Source: Spirochaetota bacterium (GTDB lineage: Bacteria > Spirochaetota > Spirochaetia > CADAEX01). From it: 38,455 nt of DNA. The notes under the pieces are model-generated. The model made no database searches, had not been told where the DNA came from, and saw only the letters and a program-made list of their open reading frames with translations. This document shows positions 4,236-38,455 of the stretch, one piece after another (the first letter of the stretch is position 1; every line of letters begins with the position of its first letter). A program made the translations under genes and the position numbers. The DNA is taken from assembly GCA_009786125.1 (NCBI GenBank), contig WQTU01000128.1:1-38455 (forward strand), given 5' to 3'.

Positions 4236-4265
4236 TTGTATACCCCTTTTACATTGATATATTAT

Positions 4266-4311
4266 AAAAATTATTTTACCATAAGACTAGCCTTCTGGTA
4301 AAATAATTTTT
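4266..4311. repeat. Perfect 16-bp inverted repeat between divergent genes
   Basis: AAAAATTATTTTACCA (4266-4281) is repeated in exact inverse at 4296-4311, loop 14 nt. It lies between two divergently transcribed starts, so it cannot terminate either annotated gene. It directly adjoins repeat copy 3. Confidence 0.8.
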
Positions 4312-4485
4312 GTTCGCCTCCTCGCTAGGTTCATAAGGGGCTATGCCCCTTGTCCACCTCATCGTTCGGTCATGTGCGTGCAAAGCACGCCAGCGACCCT
4401 CACTTCTTCGGTGGATGTGCAGCTCTGTTTGCATGCAACTCTCGCGGAGTTTACCCCGTCGAAGGACGGGGTCGGCGAATAATAA
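4312..4485. repeat. Dispersed GC-rich hairpin element, copy 3
   Basis: About 175 bp with three successive strong hairpins: AAGGGGC/GCCCCTT (4335-4351), GCGTGC/GCACGC with loop AAA (4376-4390), and ACCCCGTC/GACGGGGT (4453-4472). It opens with CTCCTCGCT, as copies 13 and 14 do. The part at 4369-4419 (GTCATGTGCGTGCAAAGCAC and following) matches the reverse complement of copy 12 with only scattered differences. It lies upstream of the thioesterase and ends about 15 bp before its start. Confidence 0.7.
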
Positions 4486-14495: not shown

Positions 14496-14616
14496 GTAAC
14501 CTTTCATACTGATGATGCCCCTTAGTGTGAATGGGAAAAAAAGTTATTGCAATATTAAATTTTATAGTATAAACAGTATAGTAAGAAATGACTTAAAACT
14601 CCAGCCAAAGGGCAAG

Positions 14617-14713
14617 AATCTACTTCAGGAATTTACGACAGGAACCTACTCTAAAAATCTACTTCAGGAATTTACCCCAGAAATCTACTCCAAGAATCTA
14701 CTTCAGGAATTTA
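14617..14713 (+). repeat. Tandem 39-bp repeat (2.5 units) upstream of the chemotaxis receptor
   Basis: AATCTACTTCAGGAATTTA recurs exactly at 14617, 14656 and 14695, period 39 bp. Each unit contains a weaker half-copy (AACCTACT, AAATCTACT), suggesting an ancestral ~19.5-bp unit. A short open frame (14512-14766) crosses it with 13-residue repeats, but it lacks a good ribosome site. Confidence 0.85.
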
Positions 14714-14799
14714 GCTCAGTAATGACGTATCCTGGAGCTTTAGGCAAAACTAAAAGCAAAACATAGTTTATGTTTTTCGCAAAAGGAGATGTAGAGTAT

Positions 14800-17782: not shown

Positions 17783-18757
17783 TCATCTGCATGATGTGGA
17801 AATTTCGCCGCTATAATACTTTTTTGTCCGCCCTGCGTCGTCTGTTATAAGCAGTTCGCCATCCGGACCAATTCCTTCAATAATTCCTGTAATTGCTTTG
17901 GGATTTTCATGCAGATTCTCGTAAAAAGTAATTTTCTTCCCCTTGTTGTGGAGTTTTTCCAAAACAACATCTTTCCAGTACCAGCTACGCCTGGCAGGAA
18001 CCTTCGCTTGTAATGCTCGGTCAGCCGGAAAATTCCAATTCTCTTTCATAAAATCGAGGAGCTTTATAAGAGTATCATTTATATCTGGCTTAACTCCTGT
18101 AAGCTCGTAGATAGAAACGCCATTGCCTCTGTCCTGCGCTCGCTTTGCGCGTGCCTTGCACGTGACCGAGTGAGGAGGCGGACACAGAGTATCGCTACCC
18201 GCATTCGCGTGCCGCGCGCAGGACGCGGCGTCCGTGCCGCAGACTTCTTCTATATTGTACTGATTATCCTGCCCAAGTTGCACCGGACTTTGCCTGCAAT
18301 TAAGGCCTATGCCGCACAAAACATAACCGCTGCTGTTCTCGCATAAAATGCCGGATATTTTTCTTCCATTTACAAGAACATCATTTGGCCATTTTATGGC
18401 GCTCTTAATTGCAAACTCTTTTTCGAGAAATCCCGATATGCAAAATCCAACAAAAAGCGGGAACAGAGAAAGCGCAAATCCAATATCAGAATTTTTTATA
18501 AGAATCGTAAACATAAGGCTTTCGTCTTTTTCGGAAAACCACTTGCGGCCTTCTAGGCGGCCTTTTCCTGCTGTTTGAAAAGAAGCAAGAACGAGAGTTC
18601 CTGTTGGCGGGTTTTGGGAAAGAAGCTCCCTTGCGTTATTCATTGTTGAAGATGTTGTCTCTTTGTAATAAATCTCTGCCATCTCGCCGGAGCCGGCTAT
18701 GCTAAATGGGTTTTTAAGATTCAGCTTTTGCAGCCCTGCGTTTAGCTGCTCCGGCAT
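17783..18757 (-). CDS. birA: Biotin--[acetyl-CoA-carboxylase] ligase with an in-frame repeat insertion
   Basis: 324 residues. It activates biotin with ATP and attaches it to the biotin carrier protein. Core motifs: TTSSTMNNA (~34-42), FQTAGKGRLEGRKWFS (60-75, the biotinyl-AMP loop), IKWPNDVLVNGRKISGIL (121-138) and CGIGLNCRQ (148-156); the C-terminal SH3-like domain ends the protein. There is no N-terminal helix-turn-helix, so it is the non-regulatory type. Residues ~173-210, rich in Cys, Arg, Ala and Pro, are unlike any BirA and are encoded by repeat copy 6. Removing them restores NIEEV-GNGVSIYELTGVKPD, a normal loop before TLIKLL. The start at 18757 follows GGAGGGG and overlaps mnmA by 16 bp. 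Confidence 0.93.
   Translation of the reverse strand: MPEQLNAGLQKLNLKNPFSIAGSGEMAEIYYKETTSSTMNNARELLSQNPPTGTLVLASFQTAGKGRLEGRKWFSEKDESLMFTILIKNSDIGFALSLFPLFVGFCISGFLEKEFAIKSAIKWPNDVLVNGRKISGILCENSSGYVLCGIGLNCRQSPVQLGQDNQYNIEEVCGTDAASCARHANAGSDTLCPPPHSVTCKARAKRAQDRGNGVSIYELTGVKPDINDTLIKLLDFMKENWNFPADRALQAKVPARRSWYWKDVVLEKLHNKGKKITFYENLHENPKAITGIIEGIGPDGELLITDDAGRTKKYYSGEISTSCR
18128..18241. repeat. Dispersed hairpin element, copy 6, in frame within birA
   Basis: A 114-bp GC-rich block in an AT-rich gene. GTCCTGCGC (18131-18139) pairs with GCGCAGGAC (18216-18224), and GCGGC (18225-18229) with GCCGC (18236-18240). In reverse complement the order CTGC-GGCACGGACGCC-GCGTC matches copy 14 (CTGC-AACATGGACGTT-GCGTC), with both sides of the hairpin changed together. 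Length is a multiple of three and free of stops in the birA frame. Confidence 0.85.
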
Positions 18758-29173: not shown

Positions 29174-32100
29174 TTACCGTCCCATCCAGGCAAACATATC
29201 CTTGTCAATTTCTGTATATATAAGCACCCCTTCCATTCGAATGTTTTCTGCGCTATATGGAATAACATTAGTCGAAGGTCGGCGAATAGGTCTTCCTGCA
29301 TTAAGAAGCGCAAATTGCATATTAAGCTGTGCAAGCGGTCTTGTAATACTTCGGTCAAGAGTTTCCGGGTCTCTGCTTAAAAAATCATAAAGCTCCGCAG
29401 ATCTTGTAAGATTAACAAGAGCGCGTGTATAATAACTTGCACTTTGACTCCTTACAGCCAAATTATATAAAGTTGCGCCAAGATTATTATAGGCTTCCAT
29501 AAGCCTTCTCATATTAAACCTGTGGTCCCTTCTTCTGTCAATTTCAACAAAGTTAATAGCTCTCCACCGTTCAAGCCTATCAATAACTTGCTCATAAAAA
29601 GCCATTGCCAATGAGTAATTATTATTGTGAAAAGAAGCATTTGCAAACGCAAACAAAACAGATATATTATTTCTTTCCTCAAGAGATATTGCATAAAACC
29701 TTTCCGCAGCTTCTCTGAAATTCCTGTTTCTGTAATAGATAAATCCTATTTTATATGAAAGATTATTGTCTCTAAGACCTGTGGCTTCTGCTTTATAAAA
29801 TTGAATCAATGCATCGTTATATTTACCAACAATGTAAAAATATAAATCTCCGTAATCTTCATAAAGTTTTCCGAATCTTGGGTGAACGCCAAGAATATCT
29901 ATATTTCTTTCATATTCGTTGATAGCACGCTGAAAATATCTCTGCGCCGAAAGAACATTTCCATCCTGTAATTCAAAGTTACCAAGCCTGTTAAAAGCCT
30001 CTATTTCAAACTCTTTTCGCTGCCTTCTTGCATGCATATAGGAGTGCGGGTAATTTCTTCTCACATGATCAAGCGTATAACGCGCAGAGAGTTCTTCTAC
30101 AATCTGCAGAGATCTTCTTTCCATCTCCCTGGCTCCGTGTATTCTCCAGAACCTTGCAAGCTGAGAATGGGGTTCCAGAAGTTTTCTGTCAAGAGCAGCT
30201 ATTCTAATAAGCTCTCTTTCTATTCCGTCCAGATTCTCTTCATGCAAAATAAGATAGCCGTAAAAATCTGCAGCAATATAAGCGTCAATATGCCGCGGCC
30301 TCAGGTTTTCAAGAAAATGCCTATACTGACCAAGCACCATGAAATACCTTTTTTGTCCGGCAGCAAACCCTTCTCTTGTATCACCAATATTTGCAAATGC
30401 TTCGTTTCTCATATTAAGCAGCCTGCCGGATCTCACGCTATGAGTTATTCTACGCAGAAAAAATTCAGGTCTTGGACCAAACCTTGACAAGCTGTTATTT
30501 ATTATAATCGCCGCGTTATCAAATTTTGTGCTATCTATTTCCGCCCAGTTCAGGTAATTATCAATCTGCTTGATAAGCATATCAGAATCCCACTTGTTTC
30601 CTCTAAGCTGGAGAAAATCATCTATTACGCGCGCAGACCTGGAAAATTCTCCCATGTAATATGTCAAAAGCACCGAATAATCTAAAAAGCCTCTTTTGTC
30701 TCCCGGAAAAAATCCGCGATATCTTTCTCTCGGAGGTCTTTCTCTTTCGGAACTCAGGCTTACTCCAAGAAGCTGCCGGTATTTTATTTCTGCTCGGCCG
30801 AATTCGCGTTTTTCAATAAGTGCATCTGCGAACCTGTAAAACTGTCTTCGTACCGGTCTTATATTAACAGCTCTCTGAAAAAGCCTTTCAGATTCGGTAA
30901 AGTTTTCAATCAAAAGAGCTTCGAATCCTTTTCTGTAAAGCCATGCTGAATAAGCAGGTTTCCATATAAAATTATTTATTAAAAACAGCACAAAAAGAAT
31001 TGCAAAAGATGCTGCAATGGCTTTTCCAACAAAAGGAGCGACCCTGTATCTTATAACATACTCCAGCGTGCCTTTTTCTCTCTCAAGTTCCTGCCATGTT
31101 TTTCTTTGATACTGAGCCGGTATGCGAATTCTCTTTCCTGTTATTTTAAAGATAACTTCTACAATTTCCCTGGCAGAAGCGCCTATTGCAAGTTTTTCAA
31201 CAAGATTATCAAGATGAGCTTTTGGAATATCTTTGTTCCCAATAAGATCTTCGATATAAAGTTTGAGATTTCCGGGATATGAAGATAAAGTCTCTGTTAT
31301 TCTTTTTAATTTTTCCGAAGTTACATAAGGTTTTTCATAGCCGCCTTCTTCGCTTTCATAGCCTTCTTCGCTTTCATAGCCTTCCCCGGCTTCGGCGTCA
31401 CCGAATATTTCTTCTTTAGGTTTTGCAGCGACACGCGAATCTTCAAGCTCATCAATAGAGCCGAATTTTTCCCCAAAGTCTCCAAGATCAAATTCTGCTG
31501 ACTCTGAGTCTCCCTGCCCTGACAATTTTAAGTCATCCGAGTCATCTAAAGTCAAACTACCAGCTTCGGCATCTTCTTTTTTCTCAAACTCATCATCTAT
31601 TGAAATTGTATCTAATGAACTTATGTCAAAGCTCTCGTCTGTTGCTTTTGGCAATTCCGCGTCAAGTGATGGCAGCTCAAAGGCATCGTCATCGGAGATG
31701 GTATCATCATCGGAGATGGCATCGCTTGCGTCTGCGGAATCCGCGTCAAGTGATGGAAGCTCAAAATCATCGCTCGCGTCTGCGGAGTCCGCGTCAAGTG
31801 ATGGAAGCTCAAAATCATCGCTCGCGTCTGCGGAGTCCGCGTCAAGTGATGGAAGCTCAAAATCATCGCTTGCGTCTGCGGAATCCGCGTCAAGCGATGG
31901 AAGCTCAAAATCATCGCTTGCGTCTGCGGAATCCGCGTCAAGTGATGGAAGCTCAAAATCATCGCTTGCGTCTGCGGAATCCGCGTCAAGTGATGGAAGC
32001 TCAAAAGCATCGCTCGCGCCTGAGGAATCCGCGTCAAGTGATGGAAGCTCAAAGTCATCGCTTGCGTCTGCGGAATCCGCGTCAAGTGATGGAAGCTCAA

Positions 32101-32818
32101 AGGCGTCGCTTGCGTCTGCGGAGTCCGCGTCAAGTGATGGAAGCTCAAAGGCGTCGCTTGCGTCTGCGGAGTCCGCGTCAAGTGATGGCAGCTCAAAGTT
32201 ATCATCATCGGAGATGGCATCGTCATCGGAGATGGTATCTTCTGCTGCGCCGGCTGCATCCGCATCTGCAGAGCTCTTGTCTTCAAAAATATCATCAAGA
32301 GAACCAAGGTCAAAATCTGCAGAAGAATCGCCCGCGTCCTCTTCAGAAAAGCGGTCAAGAAGAGCATCGGGGTTATCATCTATTTTAACAGAATCATCGC
32401 CAAAAAGATTCTCAAGATCCCCAAGTCCTTCATTTTCTTTGCCGAAAACATCATCATCCGGAGGCGGCAAATCAAGGTCCGGCAGATCAGAATCAAAATC
32501 CGCAAGCTTGCCAAGATCATCATCTTCATTCTGCGCAAGAGGCAAATCTTCATCGGAGATGCTGTTGTCCGCGTCTGCATCCGAAAGGTCTTCGTCCATT
32601 AAGTTGTCAAAATCCGCGTGGGTACCATCTTCGATGATGCTATCTTCTGCATCTTCGTCTGCAAGACCATCGAGAAGGGAGGATATATCGTCCGAGACAC
32701 CGGTTTCTTGCGGTATTATATCCTGAATCTTTTCCCCTATTTGTGCCAAAATAGCAGGTTCGTTGCCAAGTGAGTTAAGCTTATCTTTTAATTTATCGAT
32801 GTCTTTGATTTCAGGCAT
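29174..32818 (-). CDS. Large membrane-anchored TPR protein with an acidic repeat domain
   Basis: 1214 residues. Residues 1-~490 are Asp/Ser/Glu-rich and probably disordered, including ten exact-length 16-residue repeats (FELPSLDADSADASDD, ~208-367) flanked by ISDDD repeats. A small helical domain follows (~500-570, KLKRITETLSSYPGNLKLYI...), then one transmembrane helix (~597-617, AIAASFAILFVLFLINNFIW). The C-terminal ~590 residues hold several TPR-like units (GFEALLIENFTESERLFQRAVNI; RYFQRAINEYERNID; ALIQFYKAEATGLRDNNLSYKIGFIYY; NNYSLAMAFYEQVIDRL). The likely topology is an acidic cytoplasmic arm and a periplasmic TPR scaffold. No catalytic motif is seen. Such proteins are common in treponemes, but I cannot assign a function. 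ATG 32818 follows AGGGA. Confidence 0.85.
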   Translation of the reverse strand: MPEIKDIDKLKDKLNSLGNEPAILAQIGEKIQDIIPQETGVSDDISSLLDGLADEDAEDSIIEDGTHADFDNLMDEDLSDADADNSISDEDLPLAQNEDDDLGKLADFDSDLPDLDLPPPDDDVFGKENEGLGDLENLFGDDSVKIDDNPDALLDRFSEEDAGDSSADFDLGSLDDIFEDKSSADADAAGAAEDTISDDDAISDDDNFELPSLDADSADASDAFELPSLDADSADASDAFELPSLDADSADASDDFELPSLDADSSGASDAFELPSLDADSADASDDFELPSLDADSADASDDFELPSLDADSADASDDFELPSLDADSADASDDFELPSLDADSADASDDFELPSLDADSADASDAISDDDTISDDDAFELPSLDAELPKATDESFDISSLDTISIDDEFEKKEDAEAGSLTLDDSDDLKLSGQGDSESAEFDLGDFGEKFGSIDELEDSRVAAKPKEEIFGDAEAGEGYESEEGYESEEGGYEKPYVTSEKLKRITETLSSYPGNLKLYIEDLIGNKDIPKAHLDNLVEKLAIGASAREIVEVIFKITGKRIRIPAQYQRKTWQELEREKGTLEYVIRYRVAPFVGKAIAASFAILFVLFLINNFIWKPAYSAWLYRKGFEALLIENFTESERLFQRAVNIRPVRRQFYRFADALIEKREFGRAEIKYRQLLGVSLSSERERPPRERYRGFFPGDKRGFLDYSVLLTYYMGEFSRSARVIDDFLQLRGNKWDSDMLIKQIDNYLNWAEIDSTKFDNAAIIINNSLSRFGPRPEFFLRRITHSVRSGRLLNMRNEAFANIGDTREGFAAGQKRYFMVLGQYRHFLENLRPRHIDAYIAADFYGYLILHEENLDGIERELIRIAALDRKLLEPHSQLARFWRIHGAREMERRSLQIVEELSARYTLDHVRRNYPHSYMHARRQRKEFEIEAFNRLGNFELQDGNVLSAQRYFQRAINEYERNIDILGVHPRFGKLYEDYGDLYFYIVGKYNDALIQFYKAEATGLRDNNLSYKIGFIYYRNRNFREAAERFYAISLEERNNISVLFAFANASFHNNNYSLAMAFYEQVIDRLERWRAINFVEIDRRRDHRFNMRRLMEAYNNLGATLYNLAVRSQSASYYTRALVNLTRSAELYDFLSRDPETLDRSITRPLAQLNMQFALLNAGRPIRRPSTNVIPYSAENIRMEGVLIYTEIDKDMFAWMGR
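31718..32197 (-). repeat. Ten tandem 48-bp in-frame repeats in the TPR protein
   Basis: Exactly ten units of 48 bp, each encoding FELPSLDADS(A/S)(D/G)ASD(D/A). Nucleotide identity between units is very high, with changes mostly at third positions and at the terminal Asp/Ala codon. An eleventh partial copy (FELPSLDAE) lies beyond ISDDDTISDDDA. Such arrays change length by slippage or recombination. Confidence 0.95.
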
Positions 32819-33644: not shown

Positions 33645-33810
33645 ACCTTTAAAACCCGCCCATGCGCAAAAGGTCGCAGGCGTACCCAGCAGCTCTGCTG
33701 AAGAAAGCCGCCTTTAGGCGGCGTACACTGCGGCTTGCGAAGCAGCCCGCGCCCGGTGCAGCGGCACAGATATCGCTGCACCGGGAAGCTTTGCGCGTAA
33801 TACCTTTTAT
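33645..33810. repeat. Dispersed hairpin element, copy 11
   Basis: It lies between converging genes. It contains CTGCGGCTTGCGAAGCAG (33728-33745), nearly identical to copy 14 at 38208-38226. A perfect 12-bp stem, CCCGGTGCAGCG/CGCTGCACCGGG (33752-33763, 33774-33785), follows, in the place where copy 13 has a different perfect stem. GCCGCCTTTAGGCGGC (33708-33723) is a further hairpin. Confidence 0.8.
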
Positions 33811-33830
33811 TTTAATACCTGTTTACACAC

Positions 33831-34844
33831 TTATTCAAGAAATACGCCGAACACCCAGCCTTCGAGCGGAGTAGTTACGCGATACCATCTGGCGCTATCT
33901 CCGCCGATCGTAAAATTCTCCGCAGTCCGCTCGCTAACCGTTACTTCCTCATCTTTGCTTAGGCGGTCAATTACCCTGCCGGCATTTTGATCGGGAAAAT
34001 CACGGACATTTACATTATCGCTAATAACAAGCATAAAAGCACTGGTTACAGGCTCGGTTCTTGGAGGGACCGGCGGTGTAGCATCAGCAACAGCATTAGG
34101 GTCAATCAACACCTGTATGTCTGCGCGAAAAACTGAATCCGGGAAGTCCATAAACGCCGATTCCAGCAGCGCCTCTCTGCGAATTCCGGCTGCGCCTGTG
34201 GTTGCCAGCGGCAAGGCGGTTTGCAGCAAAATGGAAGCCTGTATATCGGATGTTCTTCTGGAAAGGGAAGCAGTGCGGACAAATTGGTTCTGCCGGTTAG
34301 CCTGCGCTATTGGGTCAAAAGCCCTTACTTTAACAAATCCGTCGCGCTCTGTGTCTGGATACAATACCACTACTGTTTTGCGGGAGAGGATTGTTCCGGT
34401 TACGTCAACAGCTCTTGGCGAAGTAAACAGATTGGCCCTGTCATCAATAACTACCGCAAGAGCACCTGCTTCTACAACCTGAGTAGTCCACCCAAATCCC
34501 TCGTTTCCGTTATCGCGGCGGACTTTAACAAAATTGTGGACCCTTCCATCCGATGGAAAAGTTGCTCTCCTGATTTCTCCCATTTGCACTCTTTCTCCCA
34601 GAGACATTCCGGCTATCCATCTTACCCTGTCTGTTTCGCTGTCAGTATCATTTTCAAGGGTATAAAATGCAGAATTAAGGCGCAATACATAGCCATCCCG
34701 CCAGCCTCCTGGGGCAACAGCCGGCTCAGCAGTGCCGTCGCCAGCAATTGCTCTGACTGAGTCTTGTGCGTCTTCGCTTCTGCCGCAAGAAAAAAACAGA
34801 ATAGCAGCAAAAACCATTATCGAAAAAATTATTATACGCTTCAT
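33831..34844 (-). CDS. Lipoprotein with SH3-type domains
   Basis: 337 residues from the ATG at 34844, preceded by TGGAGAAT; a TTG four codons upstream lies on the ribosome site. A lipoprotein signal peptide ends ILFFSC, with C20 as the lipid-bearing residue; Phe at -3 is atypical for enterics but tolerated in spirochaete lipoboxes. The C-terminal ~70 residues are a bacterial SH3 domain (DNVNVRDFPDQNAGRVIDRLSKDEEVTV...ARWYRVTTPLEGWVFGVFLE). Residues ~45-130 and ~135-200 look like two more diverged SH3 units (VVIDDRANLFTSPRAVDVTGTILSRKTVVVLYPD). Probably envelope-bound and contacting peptidoglycan or protein; the function is unknown. Confidence 0.75.
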   Translation of the reverse strand: MKRIIIFSIMVFAAILFFSCGRSEDAQDSVRAIAGDGTAEPAVAPGGWRDGYVLRLNSAFYTLENDTDSETDRVRWIAGMSLGERVQMGEIRRATFPSDGRVHNFVKVRRDNGNEGFGWTTQVVEAGALAVVIDDRANLFTSPRAVDVTGTILSRKTVVVLYPDTERDGFVKVRAFDPIAQANRQNQFVRTASLSRRTSDIQASILLQTALPLATTGAAGIRREALLESAFMDFPDSVFRADIQVLIDPNAVADATPPVPPRTEPVTSAFMLVISDNVNVRDFPDQNAGRVIDRLSKDEEVTVSERTAENFTIGGDSARWYRVTTPLEGWVFGVFLE

Positions 34845-34944
34845 ATTATTCTCCAAAAATTCCAGTTTTACTTATTATATATACAATAAACAAGCAATTT
34901 TGCATAGCCTTTTTTGATTAAGCTGCCTGAATTCAATGATAATG

Positions 34945-35125
34945 CTGTTATTTCTGAGTTAAGCGAGAGTCGTATCAAAGCCAAACCCGAAGGGGACGTG
35001 GCTTGCACGCTCATCCGCCAAATAAGCGGGAGTCGCGGCGTGCTTGCATGCTCATGACTAGCAAAGGGGTTTTCCCTTGTGAACCAGGAAACAAAGGGTC
35101 GGAAAGCATACCCTTTATTAAAGCA
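34945..35125. repeat. Dispersed hairpin element, copy 12
   Basis: Between the lipoprotein and galE is a 380-bp spacer without a convincing gene. Its GC-rich part is the reverse complement of the copy 3 type: on the - strand, GTCATGAGCATGCAAGCACG and following GGCGGATGAGC align with 4369-4419. Downstream, the spacer holds AAGTATATACTT (a perfect 12-bp palindrome near 35155) and the hairpin below. Confidence 0.7.
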
Positions 35126-35183
35126 TAAAACCACGGCTTGAATAAAAAAATCAGTAAGTATATACTTTTCAAAAATAAGTTTT

Positions 35184-35202
35184 ACCCTATTTGAAGTAGG
35201 GT
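35184..35202 (+). promoter_or_regulatory. Hairpin just upstream of the galE ribosome site
   Basis: ACCCTATTT pairs with AAGTAGGGT (one G-T), loop of one base (in practice three to five), 10 bp before the AGGAG of galE. It could control galE expression or end an upstream transcript. Confidence 0.35.
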
Positions 35203-35224
35203 TTAGACTTTCAGGAGTAATTCT

Positions 35225-36208
35225 ATCAAAATCTTAATTATTGGCGGCGCTGGCTACATAGGCTCGCACGTTGCGAGAAAATTCCTTGATGAAAACTGCA
35301 ATGTAACAGTATATGATAATTTTTCATCGGGCTGCAGGGAAAATCTTTTTGCCGAAGAAACTGTTGTGGAAGGCGATATTCTTGATTCGGAAAAACTTGA
35401 TTCTGCGCTAAAACAGGGGTTTGACGGAATAATTCACCTTGCGGCATTTAAAGCAGCAGGAGAATCAATGCTGCAGCCGGAAAAATACTCTGTTAACAAT
35501 ATTAGCGGCACCATAAATATTGTTAATTGCGCTTCAAAAGCAGGGATAAAAAATATTGTATTTTCATCATCTGCGGCAGTATATGGGGAGCCCGCATATT
35601 TGCCAATAGACGAAAAGCATCCTTTGAAGCCCGAAAATTACTATGGCTACACAAAGCTGCAAATCGAAGAGCTTCTTGCCTGGTACGATAAACTCAAGGG
35701 AATTAAGTCTGCATCGCTGCGTTACTTTAATGCAGCAGGCTACGATGCAGCCGGGAGAATCGCCGGGCTTGAGCGAAACCCTGCAAATCTTCTTCCTGTA
35801 ATTATGGAAACTGCTGCGGGAATACGGAAAAAAATCGATATTTTTGGAAATGACTACCCTACTCCGGACGGCACCTGCATAAGAGATTATGTTCATGTAA
35901 CAGATCTTGCAGATGCTCACTATCTATCCATGAAATATCTTATAAAAGAAAATAAAAGCTTTACTTTAAATCTTGGGAGCGATACAGGCATAAGTGTTCT
36001 TGAGATGATCGAAAAAGCGAGAGAGATTACTGGCAAGCCAATAAGTGCAGAAATCGCTCCGCGAAGAGCCGGCGACCCGGTCAAACTTATTGCAACATCG
36101 AAAAAAGCCGAAAAAACCCTGGGCTGGCAGGCAAAGTACAGCAGCGCAGAGACTCTTATCGCCTCTTCCTGGGAAGTCTATAAAAGGTATTATACCGAGG
36201 TTGTATAA
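35225..36208 (+). CDS. galE: UDP-glucose 4-epimerase with an apparent AUC start codon
   Basis: 327 residues. It interconverts UDP-glucose and UDP-galactose, with bound NAD. The Rossmann motif GGAGYIGSH is at residues 7-15 and YYGYTK gives the catalytic Y140/K144; HLAAFKAAGES, RYFNAAGYD, YPTPDGTCIRDYVHV and RRAGDPVKL follow as in GalE. The in-frame stop TAG at 35204 bounds the frame. No ATG, GTG or TTG occurs between it and the GTG at 35366, which would remove the NAD-binding motif. AGGAG at 35213-35217 sits 7 bp before ATC-AAA-ATC, exactly where MKI is expected. So it uses a rare AUC start, or has lost its ATG by a G-to-C change (or a sequencing error). A palindrome spans its 3' end. Confidence 0.9.
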   Translation: MKILIIGGAGYIGSHVARKFLDENCNVTVYDNFSSGCRENLFAEETVVEGDILDSEKLDSALKQGFDGIIHLAAFKAAGESMLQPEKYSVNNISGTINIVNCASKAGIKNIVFSSSAAVYGEPAYLPIDEKHPLKPENYYGYTKLQIEELLAWYDKLKGIKSASLRYFNAAGYDAAGRIAGLERNPANLLPVIMETAAGIRKKIDIFGNDYPTPDGTCIRDYVHVTDLADAHYLSMKYLIKENKSFTLNLGSDTGISVLEMIEKAREITGKPISAEIAPRRAGDPVKLIATSKKAEKTLGWQAKYSSAETLIASSWEVYKRYYTEVV

Positions 36209-36220
36209 TACCTTTTATAG
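36178..36220. repeat. Perfect 18-bp inverted repeat spanning the galE stop codon
   Basis: CTATAAAAGGTATTATAC (36178-36195) is repeated in exact inverse at 36203-36220, loop 7 nt. The left arm is galE coding sequence; the right arm contains the stop and leads straight into CTCCTCGCT of copy 13. A terminator is possible, but no T run follows. Confidence 0.85.
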
Positions 36221-36352
36221 TCTCCTCGCTCGCTCACACCCACAAGGGGTACTTTGTGTGCAAGCTCTGCAGCATTGCGAAGCAGTTGCGTCTGGCGCAG
36301 CGACACGGATGTCGCGAAAAAGCGCCAGACGCTTGCCCGCGGCTGTCAATAA
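36221..36352. repeat. Dispersed hairpin element, copy 13
   Basis: It shares over 100 bp with 38320-38437, including an unbroken identical 28-bp stretch (36243-36270). Structures: CACAA/TTGTG; GCAGC/GTTGC (36269-36273, 36285-36289); and a perfect 11-bp stem GCGTCTGGCGC/GCGCCAGACGC (36288-36298, 36322-36332) enclosing GCGACA-CGGA-TGTCGC (36300-36315). The rest of the 330-bp spacer to 36537 is AT-rich with a candidate promoter. Confidence 0.9.
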
Positions 36353-36443
36353 CCAGCGAAAATTTCATCCTAAAATTCACCAGAGATTGTTTCACCCTTA
36401 TATAATAACCAGGGAAAAAATCACTCAAGTTAATCAAATAATA

Positions 36444-36472
36444 TTGCATATTTAATAATTATTTTTCATAAT
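36444..36472 (+). promoter_or_regulatory. Candidate sigma-70 promoter of the lactate permease gene
   Basis: TTGCAT (36444-36449), a 17-bp spacer, CATAAT (36467-36472), 65 bp before the start. No obvious operator. Confidence 0.35.
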
Positions 36473-36537
36473 ACCCTTAAATTGCATGAAAAACCATGTT
36501 TAATTAAATCTTTAACAAATTTAAGGAATGAAATCTC

Positions 36538-38091
36538 ATGAATCCAATTTTGATGACAATCTTGTCAATGTTGCCAATAGCTTGTTTACTTGTCTGCCTG
36601 CTTTTCATTAGACTCTCGGTTGTCAAGTCCGGAGCTATTTCTCTGTCAATTGCTCTTGCCCTTGCGCTCTTTTTCTTTGGTCTTACTGCTTCCGGTCTGT
36701 CCATCGCTGTCGGAAAGGCATTGGCTCTGGCATTATTTGTCTCGCTAATTGTATGGTGTGCGCTTTTTCTCTATCATTTAGCTGATGATTTTAAAGCTAT
36801 TGATGTGATAAGCAAAAACATCGTTATATTTGTAGAAGACAAGTTTGTTCAATTTATGTTGCTTGCCCTGCTCTTCACGGGGTTGCTTCAAGGTATGGCG
36901 GGTTTTGGAGTGCCTGTAGTTATTGTTGCTCCAATCTTAATCGCTCTTGGGTTTGACAAGATCAAATCACTTGCTGCTGCATTGCTAGGTCATTCATGGG
37001 CTGTTACATTTGGCTCTATGGGTGCGGCTTTTTTTATCATCCAAATGATAACCGGCGTCCCACCTGAAGACTTGGCTATTCCAATGTGGATATTCAATAT
37101 GGTAGCCCTTTTCTTCACTGGTCTTGGGGTTGCTTGGTTGTATGATGGGTTTAAAGGTATAAAGCTTGCCATTCCATACTTTCTGCCTGTATTTGCTGTT
37201 ATGGCGACAGTGCAATTTTTTACACTTACACTTGGTTTGTATTCGCTTGCTACTTTAAATACTGCTCTGGCAGGACTAATATCGTTGTTTGCTTTGTATA
37301 AGCTGCGGACGAAATCCAAAGTAACAACTGGTCTTTATTCAGGAGAACTAAATCTATTGCAGGCTATATTGCCTTATGCAGTCATTCTCGGCTTGTCGAT
37401 ATTATTCCAGTTTTTTCCATCTGCTTTGCGGGATATTTCGCTTTCTTTCCGATTTCCCGGATCTGAGACAGCATTGGGTCATGTAGTAGCTGCGGAAACA
37501 GGCTACGCAAGGATTAGATTGTTTGGGCACCCTGCCTTTATTCTGCTTTGCGCTTCTGTTGTTGCTATTATTATATACAAAATGGCTGGTATATGGAAAC
37601 CAGAGGTATTTCGCGGCGCTGTGCAAAAAACTGTTAAAAAAGGTATTCCGGCTACACTTGCACTTTTGTGCCTTGGAAATATGTCGTTGATCATGATGGA
37701 TTCAGGCATGATGCACCTACTGGCCAATAACGTAGCTGATCTTACAGGCAGGATGTATCCATTGCTTTCGCCGTTTTTTGGTGTACTTGGAAGTTTCTTA
37801 ACTGGTAACAATACTAATTCAAATGTCCTTTTTGGTGCTTTTCAATATACAATAGCAGACCGGCTAGGAGTAAGTACCGCAGTAATGGCTGCATCACAGT
37901 CGATATCTGGCGGCACAGGCGTTGCCATAGGTCCTACGCTTGTACTAATGGGTGCGCTTGCTGCTGGTATAAAAGGGCAAGAGTCCGTAGTTCTCAGAAA
38001 GCTTATAGTTATAGTGTTACTTATCGCACTAGCAATGGGAATCACAAATTTTATATTGCTGGAAGTATTACGCTTCGGCGCTATTGGTTAA
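36538..38091 (+). CDS. L-lactate permease family transporter (LctP/LldP/GlcA)
   Basis: 517 residues, about twelve or more membrane helices. LctP-family proton symporters import lactate or glycolate. Family motifs: LLQGMAGFGVPVVIVAPILIALG (~118-140, the G-AGFG-PVAI motif), LLGHSWAVTFGSMGAAF (~150), and FGVLGSFLTGNNTNSNVLFG (~420-440, the FLTGS-TN-N-LF motif). SQSISGGTGVAIGPTLVLMGA closes the core. ATG 36538 follows AAGGA. It is a single gene flanked on both sides by near-identical repeats (copies 13 and 14b) in direct orientation. It is less A-rich on the coding strand than neighbouring genes, which with the flanks might indicate acquisition. Lactate against glycolate cannot be decided. Confidence 0.9.
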   Translation: MNPILMTILSMLPIACLLVCLLFIRLSVVKSGAISLSIALALALFFFGLTASGLSIAVGKALALALFVSLIVWCALFLYHLADDFKAIDVISKNIVIFVEDKFVQFMLLALLFTGLLQGMAGFGVPVVIVAPILIALGFDKIKSLAAALLGHSWAVTFGSMGAAFFIIQMITGVPPEDLAIPMWIFNMVALFFTGLGVAWLYDGFKGIKLAIPYFLPVFAVMATVQFFTLTLGLYSLATLNTALAGLISLFALYKLRTKSKVTTGLYSGELNLLQAILPYAVILGLSILFQFFPSALRDISLSFRFPGSETALGHVVAAETGYARIRLFGHPAFILLCASVVAIIIYKMAGIWKPEVFRGAVQKTVKKGIPATLALLCLGNMSLIMMDSGMMHLLANNVADLTGRMYPLLSPFFGVLGSFLTGNNTNSNVLFGAFQYTIADRLGVSTAVMAASQSISGGTGVAIGPTLVLMGALAAGIKGQESVVLRKLIVIVLLIALAMGITNFILLEVLRFGAIG

Positions 38092-38103
38092 TTCATAATC
38101 TAA

Positions 38104-38179
38104 GGAAGCGCTGATTAAGAACCTACCATATTTTTAAAAATTAATAGTAGGTTCTTATTTGACTCTAATCAGCACTTCC
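38104..38179. repeat. Two-level inverted repeat after the lactate permease gene
   Basis: The inner stem AAGAACCTAC/GTAGGTTCTT (38117-38126, 38147-38156) encloses ATTTTTAAAAAT; the outer stem GGAAGCGCTGATT/AATCAGCACTTCC (38104-38116, 38167-38179) has one G-T-type change. The inner stem is followed by TATTT and may terminate the gene. Confidence 0.75.
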
Positions 38180-38189
38180 ATACTTTTTC

Positions 38190-38455
38190 TCGTTTTCTTG
38201 TAGAAAACTGCGGCATTGCGAAGCAGCCGCGCTCGGTCGAAAAAACACCGGCTGCGAAAAAGCGATAATAAAAGGTATGCTGTTTGCCCCTTAGGGATGC
38301 TTCGCGACCTTTTGTTTACCTCCTCGCTCGACCACACCCGCAAGGGGTACTTTGTGTGCAAGCTCTGCAACATGGACGTTGCGTCTGGCGCAGCGACACG
38401 GATGTCGCGATAAAGCGCCAGGCAGCTTGTCCGCGGTTCTCGCTTCGTCGGTAAA
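38190..38455. repeat. Dispersed hairpin element, copies 14a and 14b, to the window end
   Basis: 14a: GTTTTC/GAAAAC (38192-38208), then GCGGC/GCCGC (38210-38214, 38226-38230) around ATTGCGAAGCA, matching copies 11 and 13. 14b (38320-38437): near-identical to copy 13, but its hairpin is GCAAC/GTTGC (38367-38371, 38378-38382) around ATGGAC, and the long stem is slightly decayed (GCGTCTGGCGC against GCGCCAGGC). No gene is seen from 38092 to the end. Confidence 0.85.

What the first reader, a model, noticed from the sequence alone, without database searches (positions are those of the whole stretch)
33645..38455. Dispersed structured repeat family with compensatory stem changes
Copies 6, 11, 13, 14a and 14b share a module in which a 5-bp stem keeps pairing while its sequence differs: GCAAC/GTTGC (38367-38382), GCAGC/GTTGC (36269-36289), GCGGC/GCCGC (38210-38230 and 18225-18240). 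The next stem also covaries: GCGTCTGGCGC/GCGCCAGACGC in copy 13, GTCCTGCGC/GCGCAGGAC in copy 6, CCCGGTGCAGCG/CGCTGCACCGGG in copy 11. Paired changes on both arms are direct evidence that a folded RNA or single-stranded DNA is what is conserved. REP/BIME elements and Rickettsia palindromic elements are the nearest known analogues; I do not recognise this one. No REP-type (RAYT/Y1) transposase is in the window.
Basis: partly seen in the sequence, partly recalled or inferred. Interest (0 to 1): 0.85.

Follow-up and report, generated by a model that had tools for sequence, protein, structure and literature searches.

The report
Nested hairpin repeats inserted inside genes
A group of termite-gut spirochaetes carries over a hundred scattered copies per genome of short hairpin-forming DNA modules that insert into each other and, without breaking the reading frame, into ordinary protein genes, although no matching transposase was found; this resembles a long-unexplained feature of Rickettsia and gives an independent, more elaborate case in which to study how such DNA spreads.

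Summary
In detail: every coordinate and stem quoted is correct. The copies are not one family but interlocking modules. E (~75 nt, intergenic) has a freely varying outer stem around conserved loop motifs. C (~60 nt) is hairpin-stem-hairpin. A third, MITE-like family (D) hosts both. Covariance models find at least 121 E and 85 C copies in this genome, and 8-13 E and 21-39 C in each of three sister species. C occurs in no other genome of 198 in the class. Covariation far exceeds a tree-based null (E 360 versus null maximum 61; C 156 versus 44). C modules sit in frame, without stops, inside protein genes whose sister orthologues lack them (13 copies in 11 genes, birA in the window among them); the one frame-breaking copy found lies in a decayed vapC-like gene. 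No Y1 transposase, reverse transcriptase or TnpB was found in the genus. Best reading: non-autonomous mobile palindromic DNA, working like Rickettsia palindromic elements but not shown to belong to them, copied by an unidentified enzyme or host replication/repair. Whether the pairing is kept by selection or by hairpin template switching is open, so 'direct evidence of a folded RNA' is too strong. New variant of a known kind.

The parts
36175..36223 (+). AT-rich palindrome at the left end of an E element (AGTCTATAAAAGGTATTATAC / GTATAATACCTTTTATAGTCT)
   Evidence: inverted repeat I18, 21-nt arms, 95% complementary; same position left of other E copies with different paired arms, e.g. AAAAAGTGTTACC/GGTAACACTTTTT
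36211..36369 (+). E element (copy 13) with a C module in its apex; its outer stem matches the model poorly
   Evidence: cmsearch R1 22.3 bits with long insert; 87% identical over 121 nt to 38320-38436
36267..36332 (+). C module in copy 13: hairpin GCAGC/GTTGC, stem TCTGGCGC/GCGCCAGA, hairpin GCGACA/TGTCGC
   Evidence: cmsearch R2 62 bits
38309..38455 (+). E element (copy 14b), outer stem TTTACC/GGTAAA, mid stem ACC/GGT, cut by the contig end
   Evidence: cmsearch R1 60.9 bits
38365..38425 (+). C module in copy 14b; a core of the same score (80.9 bits) lies at the ends of several other contigs (assembly breaks)
   Evidence: cmsearch R2 80.9 bits; same score at ends of C19, C20, C25, C68, C123, C134
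38100..38265 (+). family D element (MITE-like, GGAAGCGCTGATTA..TAATCAGCACTTCC) carrying a C-type module at 38208-38257 (copy 14a)
   Evidence: aligned with about 20 other D copies, most with the empty site AGAAAACT[G/A]CGAAAAA
4264..4478 (+). nested double E: outer TTCGCC/GGCGAA enclosing a second E with stem TCCACC/GGTGGA
   Evidence: cmsearch R1 66.4 bits for 4347-4421; sequence
33665..33815 (+). compound hairpin array (copy 11); C-like at 33728-33788
   Evidence: fold z -4.9; weak R2 match, 26.2 bits
18131..18242 (-). C-type module (copy 6) inserted in frame inside birA
   Evidence: R2 match at 18190-18242; the coding stretch is absent from BirA of three sister species; inserted region predicted disordered
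17783..18757 (-). birA, biotin-protein ligase, host gene of copy 6
   Evidence: Pfam BPL_LplA_LipB 7.5e-15 and BPL_C 1.6e-5

Best explanation
E, C and D are non-autonomous mobile palindromic DNA modules of one genus of termite-gut spirochaetes. SHOWN: they are dispersed, they differ in position between sister species, they nest inside one another, and C modules lie in frame inside protein genes whose orthologues are empty. SHOWN: stems are free to change sequence as long as the arms still pair, while several unpaired motifs stay constant (AYGGAY loops, TCGCTCGG, CTCGCTTCGTC). INFERRED: a hairpin formed by the DNA when single-stranded, during lagging-strand synthesis or repair, is what the copying machinery recognises, through stem shape plus loop motifs, and is reinserted elsewhere. 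Insertions that break needed genes are lost, so what survives is intergenic (E, which carries stops) or in frame in tolerant surface loops and linkers (C). INFERRED: no dedicated transposase travels with the elements; they use an enzyme of a kind not searched for here, or host replication and repair.
For: Copy numbers and genus restriction. Covariation above shuffled, slid and tree-based controls; about 16 distinct perfectly paired outer E stems, e.g. TTTACC, TTCGTC, TTAGCC, TTGACC, TTTGTC. Filled versus empty sites: asparaginase-like gene with two C insertions, birA, TrmH-like gene and others against a sister genome; a 60-bp insertion between CTT and GC in an FGGY-like kinase (L241; sister sequence KVLAVDIG). 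Filled versus empty sites inside family D for both C and E-type modules. All clear intragenic C copies are in frame and stop-free; the one frame-breaking copy (L250) sits in a decayed vapC/PIN-like gene. E copies: none of 44 clearly inside a conserved gene. C lies in either orientation relative to the host gene, as expected of a DNA insertion. The BirA insert is predicted disordered, residues 158-190 and 200-211 below pLDDT 50.
Against: No movement was observed. No constant target-site duplication: CTGC(G) flanks C in family D and in the asparaginase-like gene but not in L241. No autonomous copy in 684 kb, and only five enzyme families were searched. The paired changes could come from template switching rather than constraint. 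Assemblies are fragmented MAGs, so a mobilising gene could be missing.
Confidence: 0.65

Rival explanations
1. The stems covary because of a mutation process, not because structure is functional: hairpin template switching (quasipalindrome correction) copies one arm onto the other, so dispersed copies stay palindromic without selection on a fold.
For: Template switching can create and maintain stems by multibase compensatory changes (PMC8794818); a similar repeat conversion is proposed for coding palindromes of Nematomorpha (PMC6649704). Several E stems differ by two or three adjacent pairs (TTTACC versus TTCGTC). The wobble asymmetry expected of RNA selection is weak.
Against: Does not explain dispersal, nesting or in-frame gene insertions. 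Conserved unpaired motifs (loop columns with entropy near 0 in C) need another cause, unless the copies are simply recent. One-sided mismatches are common: 47 G-U, 73 A-C and 95 others among 1316 E cells.
Confidence: 0.2
2. E (with its AT palindrome) is a functional RNA or regulatory element such as a bidirectional terminator or mRNA-stability structure, dispersed like BIMEs; C is a passenger.
For: E is intergenic; the AT palindrome followed by T-runs looks terminator-like; strong RNA fold of one copy, z -7.0; mild orientation bias, the gene on the left of E points away in 31 of 45 cases.
Against: Orientation classes cover all arrangements (16 divergent, 15 and 8 codirectional, 6 convergent, rough ORF calls). 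No Rfam family, even at E up to 1. G-U/A-C counts do not favour RNA on the modelled strand. Another copy folds only modestly (z -1.65).
Confidence: 0.1
3. C modules in genes are removed or skipped during expression (splicing or ribosomal bypassing), so they need not be translated.
For: They are hairpins inside conserved genes, as are mitochondrial bypassing elements (own knowledge).
Against: All clear intragenic copies keep frame and lack stops, and the only frame-breaker is in a decayed gene; skipping would not require frame preservation.
Confidence: 0.03
4. GC-rich coincidence or assembly artefact.
For: Many contigs end in these repeats, and all genomes are MAGs.
Against: More than 100 model hits, sister genomes assembled separately, genus restriction among 198 class genomes, covariation against three kinds of control.
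Confidence: 0.02

Closest known systems
Rickettsia palindromic elements (RPE) and Wolbachia palindromic elements
   Same: short palindromic repeats, in frame inside unrelated protein genes, no dedicated transposase known; Rickettsia birA also carries one (PMC3767692, Table 1: RJP_0524 biotin-(acetyl-CoA carboxylase) ligase)
   Different: different phylum; nested multi-module architecture with a compound E element that stays out of genes; direct sequence comparison with RPE families was not run
REP/BIME elements mobilised by RAYT (GTAG superfamily)
   Same: short dispersed palindromes combined into mosaics; intragenic REPs are known (PMC3733652)
   Different: no Y1/RAYT transposase in any of four genus genomes; no recurrent GTAG tag seen in the consensus sequences
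CGTC-tagged palindromic repeats
   Same: no dedicated transposase, reported from Spirochaetes among other phyla, include RPE-4 and RPE-6 (PMC3733652)
   Different: described as one 8-9 bp stem with a 4-5 nt loop, terminal CGTC and CCA-like tail; C is hairpin-stem-hairpin with 5-, 8- and 6-bp stems, E an interrupted three-helix fold
MITEs (BOX, Correia, ERIC)
   Same: modular, non-autonomous, structure-forming; family D fits this well
   Different: E and C lack classical terminal inverted repeats and a constant target duplication
Double-hairpin and repetitive hairpin-forming elements of mitochondria (PMC2800124)
   Same: dispersed GC-rich hairpin elements without an obvious enzyme
   Different: organellar; in-frame coding insertions and covarying outer stems were not compared here

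Membership tests
Rickettsia palindromic elements | palindromic repeat in several unrelated genes, in frame, absent from some orthologues | tested here: met
Rickettsia palindromic elements | sequence homology to RPE-1 to RPE-10 | not tested
   no RPE alignment on hand; plasmid and phage searches gave no meaningful match
REP/RAYT (GTAG superfamily) | Y1 transposase (PF01797) in the genome, flanked by the repeat | tested here: not met
   none in G000-G003, while the search rings in control genomes and in G005, G011, G012, G014
REP/RAYT (GTAG superfamily) | terminal GTAG tetranucleotide | tested here: not met
   absent from the E and C consensus sequences, judged by reading
CGTC-tagged REPs | terminal CGTC, single 8-9 bp stem starting with A-T pairs, loop 4-5 nt, CCA-like tail | tested here: not met
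   C and E consensus structures differ
MITE | terminal inverted repeats and target-site duplication | tested here: inconclusive
   D has GGAAGC/GGTTCC-like ends flanked by TAG; E and C have no constant duplication
known structured RNA family | Rfam match | tested here: not met
   no match on the window at gathering threshold, none at E up to 1 on 36150-36400
retroelement or IStron-type element | reverse transcriptase (PF00078) or TnpB (PF07282) in the genome | tested here: not met
   none in G000-G003

The most novel reading that the evidence does not exclude
The modules spread without any dedicated transposase: a hairpin formed in single-stranded DNA is copied and inserted by host replication or repair enzymes (or by an undescribed enzyme class), hairpins preferentially land in other hairpins, and this builds nested structures whose stems drift freely under pairing.
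Probability: 0.2. Interest if true: 0.85.

Novelty: new variant of a known kind. Interest (0 to 1): 0.62.

Why it matters
How Rickettsia palindromic elements and CGTC repeats move without a transposase is unanswered in the papers read here. This genus gives an independent case outside Rickettsiales, with many copies, clear empty sites in sister species, nested filled and empty sites inside repeat families, and strong covariation. That makes the recognised structure, the insertion boundaries and the tolerance of host proteins directly testable. It is also a warning that covariation in dispersed repeats need not mean a functional RNA.

Tried and rejected
An exact pattern from the E loop found nothing in genome contigs. 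Viral contigs: no match. Phages: none; plasmids: one weak 35-nt match in a Comamonas istA gene, judged chance. One marginal E hit outside the genus (G011, E 3.8e-4) not followed up. RAYT, reverse transcriptase, TnpB and rve-type mobilisers: absent from this genome. IS4-type DDE transposase (PF01609): three fragments in this genome, none in the sisters, which carry the elements too; one fragment lies about 70 bp from a C module but is truncated. Autonomous E enclosing a gene: none in 684 kb. Ribosomal bypassing: disfavoured by frame preservation. A strict anchor-based count of E gave only 10 copies, too few alone, but 5.8 of 6 outer pairs matched with the own partner versus 4.1 with another copy's. 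Several apparent frameshift 'interruptions' were judged, from stop codons and differing frames, to be intergenic spacers between neighbouring genes.
Full report
OBSERVATION. The window is contig C128 of a 2.42-Mb, 139-contig genome. Three sister species carry the element; in genome contigs they are titled MAG: Spirochaetaceae bacterium Lab288P1bin105, Lab288P4bin6 and Lab288P3bin165 (the matching of these records to G001-G003 rests on equal contig lengths). From the Lab288 naming I take them to be termite-gut genomes (own knowledge).

ANATOMY. Reading about 60 copies separates three interlocking modules. E: an optional AT palindrome (AAAAGGTATTATACC..GGTATAATACCTTTT), outer stem TTTNCC/GGNAAA, loop motif TCCTCGCTCGG, mid stem GTC/GAC, inner stem GCAAGC/GCTTGC, CCGC, loop motif TCTCGCTTCGTC, then AATAAA. 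A small hairpin (CACCCGCAAGGGGTACTTTG), a C module or a whole second E may sit inside it. C: hairpin 1 GCRRC-AYGGAY-GYYGC, stem 2 of about 8 bp, and in its apex hairpin 3 GCGACA-YGGA-TGTCGC followed by GATAAA. D: a MITE-like element with three hairpins and TAG-flanked ends. Window copies 13 and 14b are C in E, 14a is C in D, 6 is C in birA, 4264-4478 is E in E, and 11 is a weak C-like array.

ABUNDANCE. Model R1 (E, 10 seeds) and R2 (C, 15 seeds) find at least 121 E and 85 C copies in this genome (only 150 candidates per genome are scored, so lower bounds), 8/12/13 E and 21/35/39 C in the three sisters, and none in the other family-level genomes searched; one marginal E match lies in G011. Over 198 genomes of the class, C occurs only in these four. 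The 684-kb sample used for detailed work was chosen for the largest contigs and for contigs with hits, so its density is not a random estimate.

COVARIATION. Three controls agree. Shuffled partners: 34 versus 10.6 double-changed cells for C in a structure-blind alignment, 133 versus 38 for E (aligned to the model, so leaning towards it). Slid partners: clearly lower in both. Tree-based null (substitutions of each column re-placed on the FastTree tree of the copies): summed score E 360 versus null mean -0.5 and maximum 60.6, C 156 versus maximum 44. Seven of 15 E pairs and four of 19 C pairs pass in the structure-restricted test; the all-pairs test is much stricter and passes only one structural pair in each. 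About 16 different perfectly paired outer E stems occur.

WHAT COVARIATION DOES AND DOES NOT SHOW. It shows that pairing is preserved while sequence drifts. It does not by itself show selection on an RNA: template switching can produce compensatory changes (PMC8794818). A strand test, G-U versus A-C mismatches, gives 47 versus 73 for E and 89 versus 51 for C, the latter mostly from one pair; this neither establishes RNA nor excludes it. Fold energies are strong for copy 13 (z -7.0 as RNA, -6.6 as DNA), modest for 14b (z -1.65) and nil for the birA copy (z -0.04).

GENE INSERTIONS. birA (17783-18757, minus) has an insertion of about 50 residues that three sister BirA proteins lack; the inserted region has pLDDT below 50 while the conserved core is well predicted. 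A frame-agnostic test of 54 C loci, matching both flanks separately to sister genomes, with reading of the alignments, gives 13 C copies in 11 genes: birA; an asparaginase-like gene twice; TrmH-like; RibD-like; homocysteine-methyltransferase-like; RluC/D-like twice; an FGGY-kinase-like N-terminus; and four others, of which some lie in variable linkers where the gap is less sharp. Gene names other than birA are from recognised motifs, not from profile tests. All are in frame and free of stops. The only frame-breaking copy inside a gene is in a vapC/PIN-like gene that is decayed in this genome and frame-shifted in the sister too. None of 44 E copies is clearly inside a conserved gene. In-frame preservation argues that the inserts are translated and tolerated, and that breaking insertions are purged.

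BOUNDARIES. The L241 insertion is about 60 bp, from CTGC to the end of stem 2, with no clear target duplication. In family D the empty site AGAAAA-CTGCG-AAAAAA becomes AGAAAA-CTGCG-[C]-CTGCG-AAAAAA, and the asparaginase-like gene shows CTGC on both sides. So a short duplication or a preference for CTGC is possible but not constant.

MACHINERY. No Y1 transposase, reverse transcriptase or TnpB in G000-G003, with positive controls elsewhere; rve only in one sister; IS4-type fragments only in this genome. No autonomous E in the sample. Other transposase families were not searched and MAG gaps are possible.

COMPARISON. The closest working analogue is the Rickettsia palindromic element, known for in-frame insertions (PMC10969869, PMC3767692) and found even in Rickettsia birA. 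Intragenic REPs are also known from other bacteria, and CGTC-tagged repeats lack a transposase and have been reported from Spirochaetes (PMC3733652). Membership in REP/RAYT and CGTC families was tested on defining features and not met; RPE sequence homology was not tested. I therefore call this a new variant of a known kind: transposase-less palindromic repeats, with nested modules, a division of labour between intergenic E and gene-tolerated C, and unusually clear pairing-only stems.

Noticed in passing
window 38100-38265; L046, L049, L061-L067, L069: Family D, about 20 copies in 684 kb: GGAAGCACTGATTA..TAATCAGTGCTTCC, then TTTTCTTGCAGAAAACTACGAAAAAA, then GCTGATTTATTC-TCGATT-GAATAAATCAGC, TAG at both ends; MITE-like host of C and E modules.
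   Followed up: partly
window 31624-32295: 48-nt tandem repeat, about 10 to 14 units, inside a 1214-aa reading frame (29174-32818, minus).
   Followed up: no
window 14614-14730: 13-nt repeat (AGGAATYTACYYC-like), about 9 units, between genes.
   Followed up: no
L250:1466-1529 (G000:C121): C module in a decayed vapC/PIN-like gene, the only frame-breaking insertion found inside a gene.
   Followed up: yes
G003:C43:13046-13219; G003:C10:5838-6014: Head-to-tail C arrays, period 57-58 bp, in a sister species, hinting at tandem amplification or insertion of C next to C.
   Followed up: no
window 36269-36289, 38210-38230; L050: In some C copies the hairpin-1 loop ATGGAC is replaced by ATTGCGAAGCA, which recalls the CATTGCGA..AAGCAAT core I remember from CGTC repeats; possibly another nested hairpin.
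   Followed up: no
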